Shown: in pieces, positions 34,025 to 59,863 of the stretch | Numbering within the stretch: position 1 is the stretch's first letter | How the letters are laid out: every line of letters begins with the position of its first letter | Assembly: GCA_017303795.1 (NCBI GenBank) | Contig: JAFLBR010000001.1 | Coordinates: forward strand, 62,001-126,000 | Direction of reading: 5' to 3' | Length of the DNA stretch: 64,000 nt | DNA from: Cytophagales bacterium | GTDB taxonomy: Bacteria; Bacteroidota; Bacteroidia; Cytophagales; Cyclobacteriaceae | Translations under genes and position numbers: made by a program | Notes under the pieces: model-generated | The model's database searches: none | What the model saw: the letters and a program-made list of their open reading frames with translations, nothing else | Told to the model about the DNA's origin: nothing

Positions 34025-34579
34025 TTAATATTTCAACGGAACTTTAACCTGAGTGGTTTCCCAGGCAATAACCATAGATGCCGCAGCATCTTTTCCATCA
34101 AACATAATAGTAAATGCTTCTACTTCGGCATCGGGTTTACCAACCGGAACTTTGATGCGCGCTACATCTTTCGATTCTTCGTATTCGTAAGCACCCCAGG
34201 TATCTAATTTGGTGTTGAAGATAATTGTCCACTCTGTTTTATCCGGAATTGCATACATGGTATATGTACCTGCCTTTACAAGCTTATCACCAAATGTTAT
34301 GTCTTTGTAAAGTTTGATTTCGGTAGCTTCGTTTGCGCCAAGACGCCATACTTTTCCAAATGCTTCGGTGCCTCCTAACATGGTGCGACCTTTTTTGGAC
34401 GGACGGCCATACACTACTTTAGCCAAAGGTGCAGCGTTGCGACCGTTCGGGCGGAAGTAGGCAATATCGGCCGGACTTGGATCAAGGCCCGGAAGCTTTT
34501 GAGCAGTTGAATCCAATGTTCCAATCATCAGAAAGAAAACTGTTGCTAACAGTGCGAAATGTGTGTTTTGTTTTTTCAT
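34025..34579 (-). CDS. DUF2911 exported protein (copy A)
   Basis: 184 residues from the preferred ATG at 34579 (MKKQNTHFALLATVFFLMIG); an ATG nine codons upstream is in frame. The signal peptide ends near 26. The domain carries VYGRPSKKGRTMLGG, FGKVWRLGANEATEIKLYKDI, AGTYTMYAIPDKTEWTIIFN and a C-terminal beta-sandwich, which defines DUF2911. Periplasmic or surface location is likely; function unknown. It lies in tandem with a paralogue (34651-35163), each followed by its own terminator. Confidence 0.87.
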   Translation of the reverse strand: MKKQNTHFALLATVFFLMIGTLDSTAQKLPGLDPSPADIAYFRPNGRNAAPLAKVVYGRPSKKGRTMLGGTEAFGKVWRLGANEATEIKLYKDITFGDKLVKAGTYTMYAIPDKTEWTIIFNTKLDTWGAYEYEESKDVARIKVPVGKPDAEVEAFTIMFDGKDAAASMVIAWETTQVKVPLKY

Positions 34580-34611
34580 AGTATTGATATTAAAACTTAA
34601 ATCCAATTTAT

Positions 34612-34639
34612 AAAAAAGCCCAGCGTGTTCTGGGCTTTT
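34612..34639 (-). terminator. Intrinsic terminator after DUF2911 copy B
   Basis: On the minus strand AGCCCAG and CTGGGCT pair around AACACG, then TTTTTTA follows. It lies between the two tandem DUF2911 genes, so they are probably expressed separately. Confidence 0.85.
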
Positions 34640-34650
34640 CGTTTGATATC

Positions 34651-35163
34651 TTATCCTTTCGTGATTTTAAATGCAACCTGAGTATTCTCCCACTTTAATA
34701 TCACTTGATTTTTTCCAGCTTCGATGGTAAATGTTTCAACAAAGGCCGAAGGTTTTGTAGGTTTCACTTTCACGCGAACCACATCTTTCGCATCAGAATA
34801 GTCATACGGACTGCCGTCTGCTTGCTTGTTAATAATGATTACCCATTCGTTTTCGCCAGGAATAGTAAACAACCCGTATTTACCTTTTGCTATAGCCTGA
34901 CCTTCTAGTTTTACGTTTCCACTAAACTCAATGCTTGTGGTAGCATTGGCTCCGGTACGCCATACTTCTCCATAGGGATTTATTCCGCCTAACATCTTGC
35001 GACCTTTAGCCGAGGGCTGATGATAATCAACAGTCACTTTCACTCCGTCAATGGTACCTTCTGCTTTCGCAGGTGGACTGGCTAATTTTTTTTCCTGCGC
35101 CATAACACCTGAGAAAATGCTTAATGCAAGCAATGTGAACACAAGACTGATTTGCTTTTTCAT
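34651..35163 (-). CDS. DUF2911 exported protein (copy B)
   Basis: 170 residues from ATG 35163 (MKKQISLVFTLLALSIFSGVMAQ, a clear signal peptide). It shares with copy A the blocks DYHQPSAKGRKMLGG, YGEVWRTGANATTSIEFS, KGKYGLFTIPGENEWVIIIN, and YDYSDAKDVVRVKVKP. The two copies are well diverged, so the duplication is old. It has its own promoter upstream and a terminator downstream. Confidence 0.87.
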   Translation of the reverse strand: MKKQISLVFTLLALSIFSGVMAQEKKLASPPAKAEGTIDGVKVTVDYHQPSAKGRKMLGGINPYGEVWRTGANATTSIEFSGNVKLEGQAIAKGKYGLFTIPGENEWVIIINKQADGSPYDYSDAKDVVRVKVKPTKPSAFVETFTIEAGKNQVILKWENTQVAFKITKG

Positions 35164-35218
35164 AAACAAGTAATTTTTAAGATTTATTAACAATTTAAAC
35201 TAAGTCTACTTATACAAT

Positions 35219-35315: not shown

Positions 35316-35618
35316 TCATGCAAGTTGTTCCAACTCTCGTTTTAAAAATTCTGTGGGCACAACCCCAGACTGACGCCATTTTGCTTCTCCATTTTTAAAA
35401 ATAATCAGTGTGGGAACTCCCTGAACCTGAAAGTGCTGCGCCAGGGAAGGGTTTTTATCTACATCAATTTTTACGATGCGCACTTTATCTCCAACTTTTC
35501 CTTTCAGGTCTTCGAGTATAGGAGCCATCATTTTGCATGGGCCGCACCATTCGGCAGAAAAATCGACCAGTGTGGGTGTTTCGCTGCTAATGATTTCCGA
35601 AAAACTTCCTGTTGCCAT
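35316..35618 (-). CDS. trxA: Thioredoxin
   Basis: 100 residues, slightly short at the N-terminus compared with E. coli Trx1. The redox site WCGPC (24-28) and cis-Pro in [13 protein letters not shown] are intact. It reduces protein disulfides. It is the last gene of a run with OsmC and two rhodaneses, and its ATG directly follows the OsmC stop, so it likely serves the same oxidative or sulfur stress programme. Confidence 0.95.
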
Positions 35619-36092
35619 TTATGCTGTAATAAGTTCGTTCGAATTTACCACGATTTTGGGAGTCATGGTAACTTTTGATTTGATCGAATTCGAAATCAAA
35701 CAAGCGGCTTCTGCTTTCAATAATACACGCTCGGCCCGCTCACGATCTTTTTCGTGTGCGATTGTTACGGTTGGTTCAAGTGCTACTTCGGTCATTAAAA
35801 ATTTACCTTCTACTTGCTCCAGTTTTCCTTTTGCGTTCGATGTAAAGGCTGAGAATTCCAGTTTAGAATTTTCGGCTATAGCCAAAAAGGTAGTCATGAG
35901 GCAACTGTTTACGGCAGCCGTAAACAAATGCTCGGGCGACCAAATACCGGCAATTCCTTTCGGGAACTCAGGTGGTGTAGCCACTTCAATACAACCCAGA
36001 CTTTGTACGGGTGCATCTAACTCGGGTGAACACATTACACCTTTGCGATCTTTATTCCATGCAACTGAAACATTATAGATATGGGCGCTCAT
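35619..36092 (-). CDS. OsmC family protein (peroxiredoxin-like)
   Basis: 157 residues. The two redox Cys are present in AAVNSCLMTTF (about 63) and AEAACLISNS (about 130). Members reduce organic hydroperoxides or bind reactive sulfur species. The start GIAGIWSPEHLFTAAV pattern is typical. It sits 5 bp after the rhodanese gene and 0 bp before thioredoxin. Confidence 0.9.
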   Translation of the reverse strand: MSAHIYNVSVAWNKDRKGVMCSPELDAPVQSLGCIEVATPPEFPKGIAGIWSPEHLFTAAVNSCLMTTFLAIAENSKLEFSAFTSNAKGKLEQVEGKFLMTEVALEPTVTIAHEKDRERAERVLLKAEAACLISNSIKSKVTMTPKIVVNSNELITA

Positions 36093-36097
36093 AAAAT

Positions 36098-36412
36098 CTA
36101 AATTTTAGTTTGAAGACCAATCCAGCTACCACCATTATATACCTGCGTATAACCTTTCGATTTAAGAATGTTTTTAGCCATACCACTGCGCATGCCCGAA
36201 GCACAACAAGTAATAATGGGTTTGTTCTTATCGGTAAACCGGCTGGTGTTGTTACCCAACGAATCGACCGGAATATTTACGGAACCTTTAATGTGGCCAC
36301 CGGAGTATTCGCCTTTGCTGCGTACATCCAGTATAACGGCTCCGCTTTTTACTAACTCAGCATAATTCACCTTTGGGCCAAACCCGAATAAGTTCTTCAG
36401 TAATTCAATCAT
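36098..36412 (-). CDS. Rhodanese-domain sulfurtransferase (copy 1)
   Basis: 104 residues, a single rhodanese domain. The active loop CCASGMRS has the catalytic Cys, here doubled, and LDVRSKGEYSGGHIKGSVNIP is the domain's CH2A-type entry motif. It moves sulfane sulfur between thiols or to acceptors. Its start overlaps the next rhodanese stop by 4 bp. Confidence 0.93.
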   Translation of the reverse strand: MIELLKNLFGFGPKVNYAELVKSGAVILDVRSKGEYSGGHIKGSVNIPVDSLGNNTSRFTDKNKPIITCCASGMRSGMAKNILKSKGYTQVYNGGSWIGLQTKI

Positions 36413-36702
36413 ACAGTTTCAACAGTTTTAGAAAGTAAATAGTTTACTGATAGCCAGCTTCCGCCATCTACACACGTAAAGTCTTGTTCTTTTAAGATGT
36501 GAGTTGCCATTGCACTGCGGCCACCCGATGCACAACAAAGAATGAGTGGCTGCTTTAGTTCTTGTAGTTCATCTATGCGTTGTAATAATTCGTTTACCGG
36601 AATATTTACCGAACCGGCTACATGCCCGCCTTGATATTCGCCTACGGTACGAACATCTACAATAGTGCCCGCGTTGTTTTTAAGAAGTTCCTGAATAGTC
36701 AT
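36409..36702 (-). CDS. Rhodanese-domain sulfurtransferase (copy 2)
   Basis: 97 residues, with VDVRTVGEYQGGHVAGSVNIPVNE and the active loop CCASGGRS. Paralogous to the neighbour at 36098-36412 and translationally coupled to it. Together with the DUF6132 protein upstream, OsmC and thioredoxin it forms a redox/sulfur operon. Confidence 0.93.
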   Translation of the reverse strand: MTIQELLKNNAGTIVDVRTVGEYQGGHVAGSVNIPVNELLQRIDELQELKQPLILCCASGGRSAMATHILKEQDFTCVDGGSWLSVNYLLSKTVETV

Positions 36703-36707
36703 AATAC

Positions 36708-36908
36708 TTATGCGTTTGATTTTTCTTTTTTAAACATGTTCACAACCAATCCACCCATTAGTGCGCCATATAGCGATGAGTTTACCGGACTTGATGTAAT
36801 AGGGCAGGAGCCTGAGATACAACCAATCTGTTGCCAATACAGATAGCCAGCACCTAAGCCCAGTGCAATGCCGGTAACGGTAAGCCAGTATTTTTTGAGA
36901 AGTGTCAT
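36708..36908 (-). CDS. DUF6132 family small membrane protein
   Basis: 66 residues. A first helix (about 8-26) and a second (about 44-58) flank a short loop with the motif GCISGSCPITSSP. The Cys pair and CPITS element resemble thiosulfate/sulfur transport proteins, which suits its place as first gene of a rhodanese operon; that link is an inference. It lies 5 bp before the rhodanese gene and directly under a CRP-type operator and -7 box. Confidence 0.8.
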   Translation of the reverse strand: MTLLKKYWLTVTGIALGLGAGYLYWQQIGCISGSCPITSSPVNSSLYGALMGGLVVNMFKKEKSNA

Positions 36909-36929
36909 AACCTTTGCGTTTTAATGATA

Positions 36930-36937
36930 CAAAGGTA
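36930..36937 (-). promoter_or_regulatory. -7 box of the DUF6132-rhodanese-OsmC-Trx operon
   Basis: TACCTTTG on the minus strand matches TAnnTTTG. The predicted start is near 36923, about 15 nt before the ATG at 36908. No -33 TTTG is present; the operator below occupies the activator position. Confidence 0.6.
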
Positions 36938-36956
36938 AGGTGTGTGTTTTTCGCAG

Positions 36957-36976
36957 TATGTGACTACAGTCACATA
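36957..36976 (-). promoter_or_regulatory. CRP-type operator
   Basis: TATGTGACTACAGTCACATA: 9-bp perfect arms with the exact TGTGA-N6-TCACA of the E. coli CRP consensus. Its centre is about 43 bp upstream of the predicted start, close to a class II activator position. It overlaps the last codons of the Crp/Fnr gene itself. Confidence 0.8.
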
Positions 36977-37563
36977 AGTGAAATTTTGTTTCGGGCGAGT
37001 TTTACAAGGCCTTCGTTTTCCATTTGTTTGATAACGCGTGATACGGCTTCGCGGGCCGTACCCAACTCATCGGCTAATTGTTGGTGGGTGATGGAAATTT
37101 CTTTGCTTTTGTAGAGTTCGGCTTTTTGCTTGAGCAATTGCAACAACCGCGAATCTAATTTTTGAAAGGCAATGGCATTTACAGCCGTAAGCAGTTCTTC
37201 AAAACGTTTATGATACAGTTTAAAAATAAAGTCCGACCACTCCGGAAATTTTTTGATCCACTCGCTGGCTTTTTCTACGGGTATAAAAAGTATTTCGCAA
37301 TCTTCTTCGGCCACAGCCTTTAGCTTGCTGGTTTCGTTGTGGATGCCACCCAGAAAAGACATGATGCAGCTTTCGCCTGGTGTAATGTAGTAGAGTAAAA
37401 TTTCGTGGCCTTGCGGATCGGTACGCATTACTTTCAAACTTCCCTTCAGCACCAGCGGAATGGCTTTGATGTAACTGTCTTCCTGTAAAATTACAGAACC
37501 AATCGGGAATCTCTTCAGTTGCCCGAATTGTGATACTTCTTCTTTTAGAATGCTTTGAAACAT
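36970..37563 (-). CDS. Crp/Fnr family transcriptional regulator
   Basis: 197 residues. N-terminal cyclic-nucleotide-like beta-roll (about 15-115, with LKRFPIGSVILQEDSYIKAIPLVLKG), dimer helix, and C-terminal winged HTH with ISITHQQLADELGTAREAVSRVIKQME. The recognition helix has Arg-Glu and a later Arg in the positions that in E. coli CRP read TGTGA. There are no Fnr-type N-terminal Cys residues. Its likely target is the operator at its own 3' end, controlling the downstream sulfur/redox operon. It starts 3 bp after the PepSY-like gene. Confidence 0.9.
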   Translation of the reverse strand: MFQSILKEEVSQFGQLKRFPIGSVILQEDSYIKAIPLVLKGSLKVMRTDPQGHEILLYYITPGESCIMSFLGGIHNETSKLKAVAEEDCEILFIPVEKASEWIKKFPEWSDFIFKLYHKRFEELLTAVNAIAFQKLDSRLLQLLKQKAELYKSKEISITHQQLADELGTAREAVSRVIKQMENEGLVKLARNKISLM

Positions 37564-37566
37564 GTT

Positions 37567-38112
37567 CTAAGATAACAGAAATAAAAAGATTAATGGGAAG
37601 ATTATGCCGACCAAAGCCAGTTTCCATCCGCGGCCCCAAAAACTATTTTCTCCTTTTTGAATAAACATTCCGGTAAAGGCAATAATTAACATAGCCACAC
37701 CAAATACATCCGAATAATAGATCCACCACTTGCTGGTGTCCACGTGTAGTTTAGTCATTTGGCCAAGTACCGGTGTTGTGCGATAGCTTTCAATTTTTCC
37801 TTTGCCGCTTGTGAGATCAACCTGCACATCGTTGTTGACATACGAAACTTTTAGGGTGTTGCCATCAACTGAAAAGCGTCTCAGTTGATCGTCAATTTTA
37901 TACTCTTGTGTAAAGGCCGCAATAAATTTATCGTTCACCGAATCTTTCACCACAGTTTGCTTTAACTGAATTTCCTGCGCGTTGTAAGTGTACCTGCGCG
38001 GATGCCAGGCCTGACGGTGATTCAGAAAAATCCCTGAAAAGGAAAACGCGATGATTAACCCTAAATAGAAATACGCGATGTCGCGGTGGGTGTTACGGAC
38101 GGTGAGTTTCAT
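37567..38112 (-). CDS. PepSY-associated transmembrane protein
   Basis: 181 residues with three membrane segments (about 13-31, 133-152 and 162-180). The N-terminal motif RDIAYFYLGLIIAFSFSGIFLNHR and the pattern HVDTSKWWIYYSDVFGVAMLIIAFTGMFIQKG match PepSY_TM-like proteins with a periplasmic domain between helices 1 and 2. Related proteins are linked to ferric or heme reduction. It is immediately upstream of the Crp gene and may be co-transcribed. Confidence 0.8.
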   Translation of the reverse strand: MKLTVRNTHRDIAYFYLGLIIAFSFSGIFLNHRQAWHPRRYTYNAQEIQLKQTVVKDSVNDKFIAAFTQEYKIDDQLRRFSVDGNTLKVSYVNNDVQVDLTSGKGKIESYRTTPVLGQMTKLHVDTSKWWIYYSDVFGVAMLIIAFTGMFIQKGENSFWGRGWKLALVGIIFPLIFLFLLS

Positions 38113-49100: not shown

Positions 49101-49123
49101 ACCCCTCTCCACAGGAGAGGGGT
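49101..49123. repeat. CCCCTCTCC palindrome, upstream of moaE (1)
   Basis: ACCCCTCTCC-ACA-GGAGAGGGGT, perfect 10-bp arms. The same unit occurs at 57458-57478 and, varied, at 57847-57866. It is part of a GGGGTGAGG/CTCTCC dispersed repeat. Confidence 0.8.
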
Positions 49124-57457: not shown

Positions 57458-57478
57458 CCCCTCTCCACAGGAGAGGGG
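57458..57478. repeat. CCCCTCTCC palindrome copy 3
   Basis: CCCCTCTCC-ACA-GGAGAGGGG, the same as the moaE-side copy at 49101, preceded by CTCACCCCCGG. Confidence 0.8.
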
Positions 57479-59572: not shown

Positions 59573-59695
59573 CGTGAGCCGGCTTTAAGCTTTAGCAAAC
59601 AGCCGTCATGACGCCTGAACAGGTTTTCAGACTAGGGGCTAAAGCCCACCTGGTTTTTTTTCTGTAATAACCCCGCACTAAAGTGCGGGGTTATT
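59573..59695 (+). repeat. CGTGAG..CCCCGCAC repeat, copy 1
   Basis: Shares the order CGTGAGNCGGCTTT, AGCCGTCATGACGCCTGAAC, GGGGCTAAAGCCC and the palindrome AACCCCGCACT/AGTGCGGGGTT (59666-59695) with copy 2. Starts 14 bp after the GT2 stop, so it may shape its mRNA end. Confidence 0.85.
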
Positions 59696-59741: not shown

Positions 59742-59863
59742 CGTGAGACGGCTTTTAGCTTTAGCAAACAGCCGTCATGACGCCTGAACAAAAGGTTTTT
59801 AGATTAGGGGCTAAAGCCCGCATAGTTTTTTCCGTAGTAACCCCGCACTTAAGTGCGGGGTTA
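59742..59863 (+). repeat. CGTGAG..CCCCGCAC repeat, copy 2
   Basis: Second copy, period 169, with TAACCCCGCACTT/AAGTGCGGGGTTA (59838-59863). An AAAGGGCTTTAGCCC element follows at about 59879-59893. Region 59559-59967 holds no gene. Confidence 0.85.

What the first reader, a model, noticed from the sequence alone, without database searches (positions are those of the whole stretch)
36909..36980. CRP-consensus operator at a class II position, overlapping the 3' end of the crp-family gene that probably uses it
The gap between the Crp/Fnr gene and the DUF6132-rhodanese-rhodanese-OsmC-Trx operon holds TATGTGACTACAGTCACATA with perfect 9-bp arms and the exact TGTGA-N6-TCACA of E. coli CRP. A TACCTTTG -7 box lies downstream, and the operator centre is about 43 bp from the predicted start, so it replaces the missing -33 TTTG. 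The regulator keeps the Arg-Glu...Arg recognition residues. Part of the operator is encoded by the regulator's last codons. This predicts a compact regulator-to-sulfur/redox-operon circuit in a phylum where CRP sites are poorly charted.
Basis: partly seen in the sequence, partly recalled or inferred. Interest (0 to 1): 0.7.

Follow-up and report, generated by a model that had tools for sequence, protein, structure and literature searches.

The report
Sulfur-operon switch overlapping its regulator's stop
A short mirror-symmetric DNA site in this gap is very probably the landing pad for the regulator encoded next door; relatives carry the same site at one fixed distance from the promoter of sulfur-handling genes, and often the regulator gene's own stop codon is part of it.

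Summary
Confirmed. A 20-nt perfect dyad (36957-36976) overlaps the stop codon of a Crp/Fnr-family gene; its centre lies 29 nt from the -7 box TACCTTTG, i.e. about -41.5, class II geometry. Alone the dyad is no more than chance; the evidence is comparative. In 77 non-redundant related loci the grammar TGTRAC-N4-GTNRC + NAnnTTTG occurs 89 times at 29 nt and twice at 24 other distances together. All 13 regulators of the window's clade in the sampled set have a site with an exact TAnnTTTG at 29 nt; in 12 the stop codon forms operator positions 3-5. Bait-free scans show the same spacing peak, and 24 of 31 genes read there besides the window's are sulfur or thiol-redox genes. In the window's genome the composite occurs once. 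Best reading: a dedicated class II activator of a sulfane-sulfur/persulfide operon. The window's protein lacks CRP's cAMP-binding residues and FNR's cysteines; Cys66, invariant in 81 of 81, is the candidate sensor. Binding, activation and signal are inferred. The E. coli CRP label should go: the family consensus is TGTRAC-N4-GTYACA.

The parts
36957..36976 (-). Operator: 20-nt perfect dyad TATGTGACTGTAGTCACATA; family consensus TGTRAC-N4-GTYACA; centre 36966.5 = -41.5
   Evidence: conserved in relatives; the only exact TGTGA-N6-TCACA in the genome
36970..36972 (-). Stop codon (TGA) of the regulator gene, forming positions 3-5 of the 16-mer operator
   Evidence: TGTRAC in the same register in 45 of 78 non-redundant regulators, stop TAA in 36 and TGA in 9
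36930..36937 (-). -7 promoter box TACCTTTG (TAnnTTTG), 29 nt from the operator centre
   Evidence: box with <=1 mismatch at 29 nt in 42 of 45 stop-overlapping regulators; -12 to -5 placement from PMC9723704
36925..36925 (-). Predicted transcription start (+1)
   Evidence: inference: box -12..-5 (PMC9723704) applied to 36937-36930; not mapped here
36970..37563 (-). Crp/Fnr-family regulator, 197 aa (cNMP_binding PF00027 + HTH_Crp_2 PF13545); Cys66 invariant; R171-E172...R176 recognition helix
   Evidence: AlphaFold model pLDDT 91, CRP fold
36708..36908 (-). First gene of the presumably controlled operon: DUF6132 (PF19628) small protein
36409..36702 (-). Rhodanese-domain protein 1
36098..36412 (-). 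Rhodanese-domain protein 2
35619..36092 (-). OsmC-family protein
35316..35618 (-). Thioredoxin (110.6 bits, TIGR01068 cut-off 96.8)
37567..38112 (-). PepSY_TM-like gene ending 3 bp before the regulator start; perhaps cotranscribed with it
   Evidence: cotranscription is inference

Best explanation
The dyad is the operator of the adjacent Crp/Fnr-family regulator. When activated, the dimer binds TGTRAC-N4-GTYACA centred at -41.5 and recruits RNA polymerase as a class II activator to a promoter that has the Bacteroidota -7 box but no -33 TTTG (the downstream half-site occupies that place). This switches on the DUF6132-rhodanese-rhodanese-OsmC-thioredoxin operon. In this genome it is a local, one-operon circuit rather than a global CRP regulon. 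The signal is most likely sulfane sulfur/persulfide (or another thiol oxidant) read by the single invariant cysteine, Cys66, in the sensor domain, not cAMP or an Fe-S cluster. The operator overlaps the regulator's stop codon as part of a compact, inherited layout. Shown by sequence: operator, spacing, conservation, target genes, Cys66 invariance. Inferred: that this regulator (not a paralog) is the binder, that it activates, and the signal.
For: (a) Spacing: 89 grammar hits at 29 nt (61 of 77 loci) against 2 at the other 24 distances from 17 to 41, and 0 for three scrambled motifs. In the ungapped stack of 45 stop-overlapping loci the fixed letters of operator and box carry 1-2.3 bits, the spacer columns 0-0.5 bits although the length is fixed. 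(b) All 13 members of the window's clade in the tree of 78 have an exact TAnnTTTG at 29 nt, 12 of them with the stop codon inside the operator. (c) The 93%-identical sister L071 has TGTAAC..GTTACA where the window has TGTGAC..GTCACA: both half-sites changed together. (d) Bait-free: 95 composite hits against 1 reversed control in 73 same-class genomes, but 14 against 9 in 223 genomes of other classes (recounted); spacing peak 52 at 29 nt, 23 at 30 nt, 20 at the other 19 distances (recounted; reversed control 42 in all). (e) Targets: of 114 downstream proteins, Rhodanese 42, TauE 25, Lactamase_B 20 (overlapping with Rhodanese), YgaP-like_TM 13, DUF6132 7, Sulf_transp 6, OsmC 5; of 32 proteins at 30 bait-free loci, 24 are sulfur/thiol-redox genes and one more is the window's DUF6132. 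(f) Cys66 81 of 81. (g) The composite occurs once in the genome.
Against: No binding, expression or start-site data for this organism. 16 of 77 loci have no strict grammar hit (6 of the 16, L069, L070, L097, L099, L110 and L116, miss it by one letter at the stop codon, the other 10 have nothing there). Of eight same-family orthologs (54-70% identity) two, L004 and L005, have no site next to the regulator and L007 has two only in the neighbouring region. The genome holds other Crp/Fnr genes (6 HTH_Crp_2 matches, 5 over cut-off), and a paralog (40% identity) has its own similar dyad GGTGACTGAAGTCACC before a DUF2892-like gene, spacing 30 nt, so cross-binding is possible. Hcp, TolC-like and DUF2492 genes also follow bait-free sites (5 of 32, 2 more unassigned), so the motif is probably shared by several Crp/Fnr regulators. 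Three same-family orthologs (L006-L008) have Arg78-Ser79, resembling CRP's cAMP-contacting Arg-Ser, so a nucleotide-like ligand is not excluded in the wider family. The residue-172/half-site association (Fisher 3.6e-5) is essentially one split in the tree and not independent support. The stop overlap shifts in some lineages (16 of 77 have the site within 150 nt 3' instead), so it is not required.
Confidence: 0.82

Rival explanations
1. The site is a class II Crp/Fnr operator, but it is bound mainly by a different paralog (for instance an NO- or redox-sensing HcpR2/FNR-like protein), the adjacent regulator being a bystander.
For: Six HTH_Crp_2 matches in the genome, five over cut-off; HcpR2 regulators are predicted to use GTAACnnnnGTTAC (PMC1274295, passages); one bait-free site precedes an Hcp (Prismane) gene (L148).
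Against: The operator directly follows this regulator in 54 of 77 relatives (38 at the stop, 16 within 150 nt), and the downstream genes are mostly sulfur genes; no Prismane model is among the 25 families shown (49 matched). Regulator subfamily and right half-site differ together.
Confidence: 0.1
2. The regulator represses the operon from this site (steric block of the promoter) and is released by sulfane sulfur.
For: The site overlaps where the -33 element would be; Crp/Fnr proteins can repress (recalled).
Against: The fixed -41.5 (or -42.5) placement is class II activator geometry, no -33 TTTG remains (operator columns 15-18 read C-T/C-G-T), and 24 of 28 Val172 stop-overlapping sites have a -7 box starting G/A or C/A instead of TA, as activator-dependent promoters might. 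A repressor site would not need one exact distance.
Confidence: 0.07
3. The dyad is a transcription terminator or RNA hairpin at the 3' end of the regulator gene.
For: It is an inverted repeat at a gene end and can fold as a hairpin.
Against: Arms are AT-rich, no T-run follows; right arms are often asymmetric in relatives yet the distance to the -7 box is fixed; sites also occur upstream of regulators and of separate operons.
Confidence: 0.01

Closest known systems
E. coli CRP at class II promoters (recalled)
   Same: Fold, dyad half-site TGTGA in the window, centre at -41.5 with 29 nt between centre and the first base of the -10/-7 element (E. coli geometry recalled)
   Different: The window's protein has no cAMP-binding Glu/Arg equivalents; consensus TGTRAC-N4-GTYACA; promoter is -7 TAnnTTTG; one composite site in the genome, not a global regulon
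HcpR2 (Crp/Fnr family; Rodionov et al. 2005, PMC1274295, passages)
   Same: Crp/Fnr family in Bacteroides and others; motif GTAACnnnnGTTAC has the same core; no FNR-type cysteine motif
   Different: HcpR2 is tied to hcp and has Pro (Ser or Gln in three species) at position 181; here the equivalent residue 172 is mostly Val or Glu, Cys66 is invariant and targets are sulfur genes; promoter spacing is not mentioned in the passages I saw
Persulfide-sensing regulators of PDO/rhodanese/TauE operons (CstR, BigR/SqrR, FisR; recalled)
   Same: Same kind of target genes and probable cysteine-based signal
   Different: Those belong to the CsoR, ArsR or sigma-54-activator families; this one is Crp/Fnr with a single conserved cysteine
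PgRsp of Porphyromonas gingivalis (PMC6955866, passages)
   Same: Crp/Fnr protein of a Bacteroidota species linked to redox stress
   Different: Reported haem-binding, binds hmu and bcp promoters; whether it belongs to this clade was not tested (no sequence at hand)

Membership tests
Crp/Fnr superfamily | N-terminal cNMP-type beta-roll plus C-terminal HTH_Crp | tested here: met
   PF00027 2.1e-12, PF13545 3.2e-12, both over cut-off; AlphaFold model pLDDT 91, pTM 0.67; best Foldseek hit T. thermophilus CAP 4ev0
cAMP-CRP (equivalog) | NCBIfam CRP equivalog cut-off | tested here: not met
   NF008732 scores 59 against a cut-off of 266
cAMP-CRP (equivalog) | cAMP-contacting Glu72 and Arg82 (roles recalled) | tested here: not met
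   Alignment to the CRP chain 4bh9 puts them opposite residues 69-70 and 78-80. The window has S69 F70 T78 S79 K80. In the 81 regulators there is no Glu at 69-70 and no Arg at 78-80. But three same-family orthologs outside that set (L006-L008) do have Arg78-Ser79
FNR (Fe-S) | N-terminal cysteine cluster | tested here: not met
   only Cys66 and Cys89 in the protein; only Cys66 invariant
HcpR2 | adjacent or regulated hcp gene; Pro/Ser/Gln at CRP position 181 | tested here: not met
   downstream genes are DUF6132/rhodanese/OsmC/Trx; residue is Glu172
Class II Crp/Fnr-dependent promoter | dyad centred at or next to -41.5 | tested here: met
   29 nt to the first base of the -7 box in the window and in 89 of 91 grammar hits in relatives; box position taken from PMC9723704; start not mapped here
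Class II Crp/Fnr-dependent promoter | activator needed for transcription; contacts with RNA polymerase | not testable with these tools
   needs expression and in vitro transcription
Persulfide-responsive regulators (functional class) | cysteine modified by sulfane sulfur changes DNA binding | not testable with these tools
   only the invariant Cys66 and the target genes were seen

The most novel reading that the evidence does not exclude
This is one member of a Bacteroidia-wide family of Crp/Fnr activators that sense sulfane sulfur through a single invariant cysteine and use a rigid class II promoter grammar (TGTRAC-N4-GTYACA, 29 nt, NAnnTTTG), with an ancestral layout in which the regulator's stop codon doubles as a half-site of its own target operator, so stop-codon choice and operator sequence are evolutionarily tied.
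Probability: 0.5. Interest if true: 0.75.

Novelty: new variant of a known kind. Interest (0 to 1): 0.62.

Why it matters
Activation of transcription in Bacteroidota, whose main sigma factor reads -33/-7 rather than -35/-10 promoters, is to my knowledge poorly charted. The fixed 29-nt grammar gives a directly usable genome-scan rule for Crp/Fnr-dependent promoters in the Bacteroidia, and suggests that the class II architecture is kept despite the different promoter. It also points to a sulfide/persulfide regulon that I did not find described, and to its likely sensor residue (Cys66), testable with one mutant. The stop codon inside an operator is an unusually clear case of overlapping coding and regulatory sequence.

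Tried and rejected
Palindrome as evidence by itself: rejected, at or below chance. Terminator or RNA hairpin: rejected (see rivals). Global CRP regulon: rejected; the composite occurs once in the genome, and near-matches with up to 3 mismatches are no commoner than the reversed control (81 against 124). Residue-172/half-site covariation as independent proof: rejected after the tree. Hairpin formed by the -7 box and CAAAGGT before the start codon: the box lies upstream of the predicted start, and the downstream arm is not kept in L071.

Literature: ten searches counted. I believe that those with the phrase 'Crp Fnr' (21, 25, 27, 33, 34) were blind to the usual spelling with a slash, so their silence means little. 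One search (Crp, Fnr, persulfide, Bacteroidetes, rhodanese; at least 4 of 5) found none. Papers seen as passages only: PMC6955866, PMC9723704, PMC1274295; all others as search listings. I do not claim that the regulon is unpublished, only that I did not find it.

No random-gene control was run for the Pfam tallies. Gene assignments at single bait-free loci join the tallies with the sequences read by eye. Counts are mine from their listings, recounted.

Full report
What was checked. The gap between the Crp/Fnr-family gene (36970-37563, minus) and the DUF6132 gene (36708-36908, minus) contains a perfect 20-nt dyad at 36957-36976. The regulator's last codons, ATG TGA, are inside it. A TACCTTTG box (36937-36930) follows on the minus strand. 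In F. psychrophilum the TAnnTTTG box occupies -12 to -5 (PMC9723704, passage seen). Applied here this gives +1 at 36925 and puts the dyad centre at -41.5. Between the centre and the first base of the box there are 29 nt, the same as I recall for E. coli class II CRP promoters.

Is it more than chance? The dyad alone is not: 3 near-matches in the window against 2.0 expected, and 1 exact TGTGA-N6-TCACA in the 4.87-Mb genome against 5.6 predicted from base composition and 7 for the reversed pattern. Operator, spacing and box together occur once in the genome with 0.054 expected.

Relatives. Of the eight same-family orthologs at 54-70% identity (L003-L010), L003, L006, L008, L009 and L010 carry TGTGAC-N4-RTYAC at or just 3' of the regulator stop with a box again at 29 nt (TATCTTTA in L003, TAnnTTTG in the others). 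L004 has none, L005 one about 490 nt further on, and L007 two in the neighbouring region. In the named set plus window, 45 of 78 non-redundant regulators have TGTRAC with the stop codon as operator positions 3-5 (TAA 36, TGA 9); 42 of those 45 have the -7 box with at most one mismatch at 29 nt (13 exact), while at each of the twelve neighbouring distances from 23 to 35 nt at most 1 of 45 does so. The fixed letters of operator and box are conserved, and the spacer is close to random in letters (0-0.5 bits) but fixed in length.

Grammar. Searching 77 loci (615,597 bases, both strands) for TGTRAC-N4-GTNRC followed by NAnnTTTG gave 89 hits at 29 nt in 61 loci and 2 hits at all other distances from 17 to 41 nt; three scrambled motifs gave none. 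Of the 77 loci, 38 have the site at the stop codon, 16 within 150 nt 3', 7 elsewhere, 16 none. Six of those 16 miss the pattern by one letter at the stop codon (L069, L070, L097, L099, L110, L116); the other ten have nothing resembling it there. L069, L070 and L099 belong to the window's own clade and keep an exact box at 29 nt; with them, all 13 members of that clade in the tree (support 99/93) have the element, L068 of them at 15 nt past the stop.

Without a protein bait. In 296 genomes of the phylum the composite pattern has 109 hits in 63 genomes (recounted): 95 in 50 of the 73 genomes of the same class against 1 reversed control, but 14 in 13 of 223 genomes of other classes against 9 controls, i.e. 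background. In 149 genomes of the class, allowing 12 to 32 nt between the half-site and an exact TAnnTTTG, 95 matches fall 52 at 29 nt, 23 at 30 nt, and 20 over the other 19 distances (recounted; reversed control 42 in total, about 2 per distance). So -41.5, and to a lesser degree -42.5, is a general property of this promoter type in the class, probably shared by several Crp/Fnr regulators.

Targets. Pfam on 114 genes downstream of stop-overlapping operators: Rhodanese 42, TauE 25, Lactamase_B 20, YgaP-like_TM 13, DUF6132 7, Sulf_transp 6, OsmC 5 (one protein can match several). Of 32 genes next to 30 bait-free sites, 24 are sulfur or thiol-redox genes: metallo-beta-lactamase-rhodanese 11, rhodanese alone 2, TauE 6, OsmC 3, thioredoxin 1, peroxiredoxin 1; one more is the window's own DUF6132. 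The others are TolC-like 3, Hcp 1, DUF2492 1, unassigned 2. One genome (G383) has nine composite matches, on eight palindromes, within 45 kb, in front of TauE, persulfide-dioxygenase-like and YeeE-like genes among others (named by eye except the Pfam-scanned L153 pair). One of its palindromes has a box at 29 nt on both sides, as for two divergent promoters.

The regulator. It has the cNMP-type and HTH_Crp domains and a confident CRP-fold model. It is far below the CRP equivalog cut-off (59 against 266). At the positions aligned to CRP Glu72 (69-70) and Arg82 (78-80) none of the 81 regulators has Glu or Arg respectively, and the window's protein has no FNR-type cysteine cluster; Cys66 is invariant in 81 of 81. 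Against this, three same-family orthologs outside that set (L006-L008) have Arg78-Ser79 as CRP does, so a cyclic-nucleotide-like ligand cannot be excluded for them. Residue 172, the CRP Glu181 equivalent, is Glu in 14, Val in 59, other in 8. Among the 45 stop-overlapping sites Glu-types have right half-site GTYAC in 9 of 11 against 4 of 34 for the rest, and all 11 have a full TA in the box, while Val-types mostly have GA or CA (24 of 28). This agrees with the rule of Rodionov et al. that residues 180-181 and the half-site change together (PMC1274295), but on the tree it is essentially one split.

Interpretation. The most economical reading is a class II activator acting on the operon next door. 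Class II is inferred from geometry; activation, the identity of the binder and the signal are inferred. The downstream half-site takes the place of the -33 element: operator columns 15-18 (-35 to -32) read C-T/C-G-T instead of TTTG. A persulfide or polysulfide signal at Cys66 is the best guess because the target genes are those of sulfane-sulfur handling and Cys66 is the only invariant cysteine. In the window's genome a paralog (40% identity, C23) has a comparable dyad 35 nt past its stop, before a DUF2892-like gene, with a 30-nt spacing, so two related circuits may coexist.

The stop-codon overlap. It recurs in one register across loci of Sphingobacteriaceae, Chitinophagaceae, Weeksellaceae, Porphyromonadaceae and Cytophagales records (names; sequences). 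The window and its 93%-identical sister L071 differ at both half-sites in step (TGTGAC..GTCACA, TGTAAC..GTTACA), the stop changing between TGA and TAA. Elsewhere the overlap has slipped while the 29-nt spacing has not, so the spacing is the stronger constraint and the overlap is best seen as an old, tolerated economy rather than a proven device.

Known and new. Crp/Fnr class II activation is known (recalled), and so is a GTAACnnnnGTTAC motif for HcpR2/hcp in Bacteroides (PMC1274295). What I did not find described, within searches of limited reach (listed under Tried and rejected), is the fixed -41.5 grammar on -7 TAnnTTTG promoters, the sulfur regulon of this Cys66 family, and the stop codon built into the operator.

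Noticed in passing
G000:C23:96681-97307 (L062): Second regulator of the same superfamily (40% identity, ESCVMS motif kept) with its own dyad GGTGACTGAAGTCACC 35 nt past its stop, box TACTTTAG at 30 nt, then a DUF2892-like gene (by eye).
   Followed up: partly
L177-L179 (G383:C1:2632000-2680000): Sulfur-gene island with nine composite matches on eight palindromes in 45 kb; one palindrome has -7 boxes 29 nt away on both sides, as for two divergent promoters.
   Followed up: partly
L114, L128, L129 (operator 741-749 nt before the regulator stop); L014, L016, L019, L023, L028, L029, L031 (relaxed pattern): Operators with the same or a relaxed grammar (29-30 nt) upstream of regulator genes of the superfamily, suggesting autoregulation in other branches.
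   Followed up: no
L169, L171, L173: Same operator grammar upstream of TolC-like outer-membrane efflux genes (PF02321) in three genomes; regulator unknown.
   Followed up: no
Val172 clade, e.g. L078, L109, L128: The -7 box begins with G or C instead of T in 24 of 28 stop-overlapping sites, as if the promoter were weakened to depend on the activator.
   Followed up: partly
L006, L007, L008 (regulator residue 78): Arg78-Ser79 in three same-family orthologs resembles CRP's cAMP-contacting Arg-Ser, unlike the window's Thr78-Ser79.
   Followed up: partly
window 49102-49122 and 57458-57478; 59670-59691 and 59840-59861: Two copies of CCCCTCTCCACAGGAGAGGGG and two near-identical ACCCCGCACT(W)AAGTGCGGGGT hairpins, possibly terminators or repeats.
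   Followed up: no
window 34025-35193: Two neighbouring minus-strand ORFs (193 and 180 aa) look alike by eye, a possible tandem duplication downstream of the thioredoxin gene.
   Followed up: no
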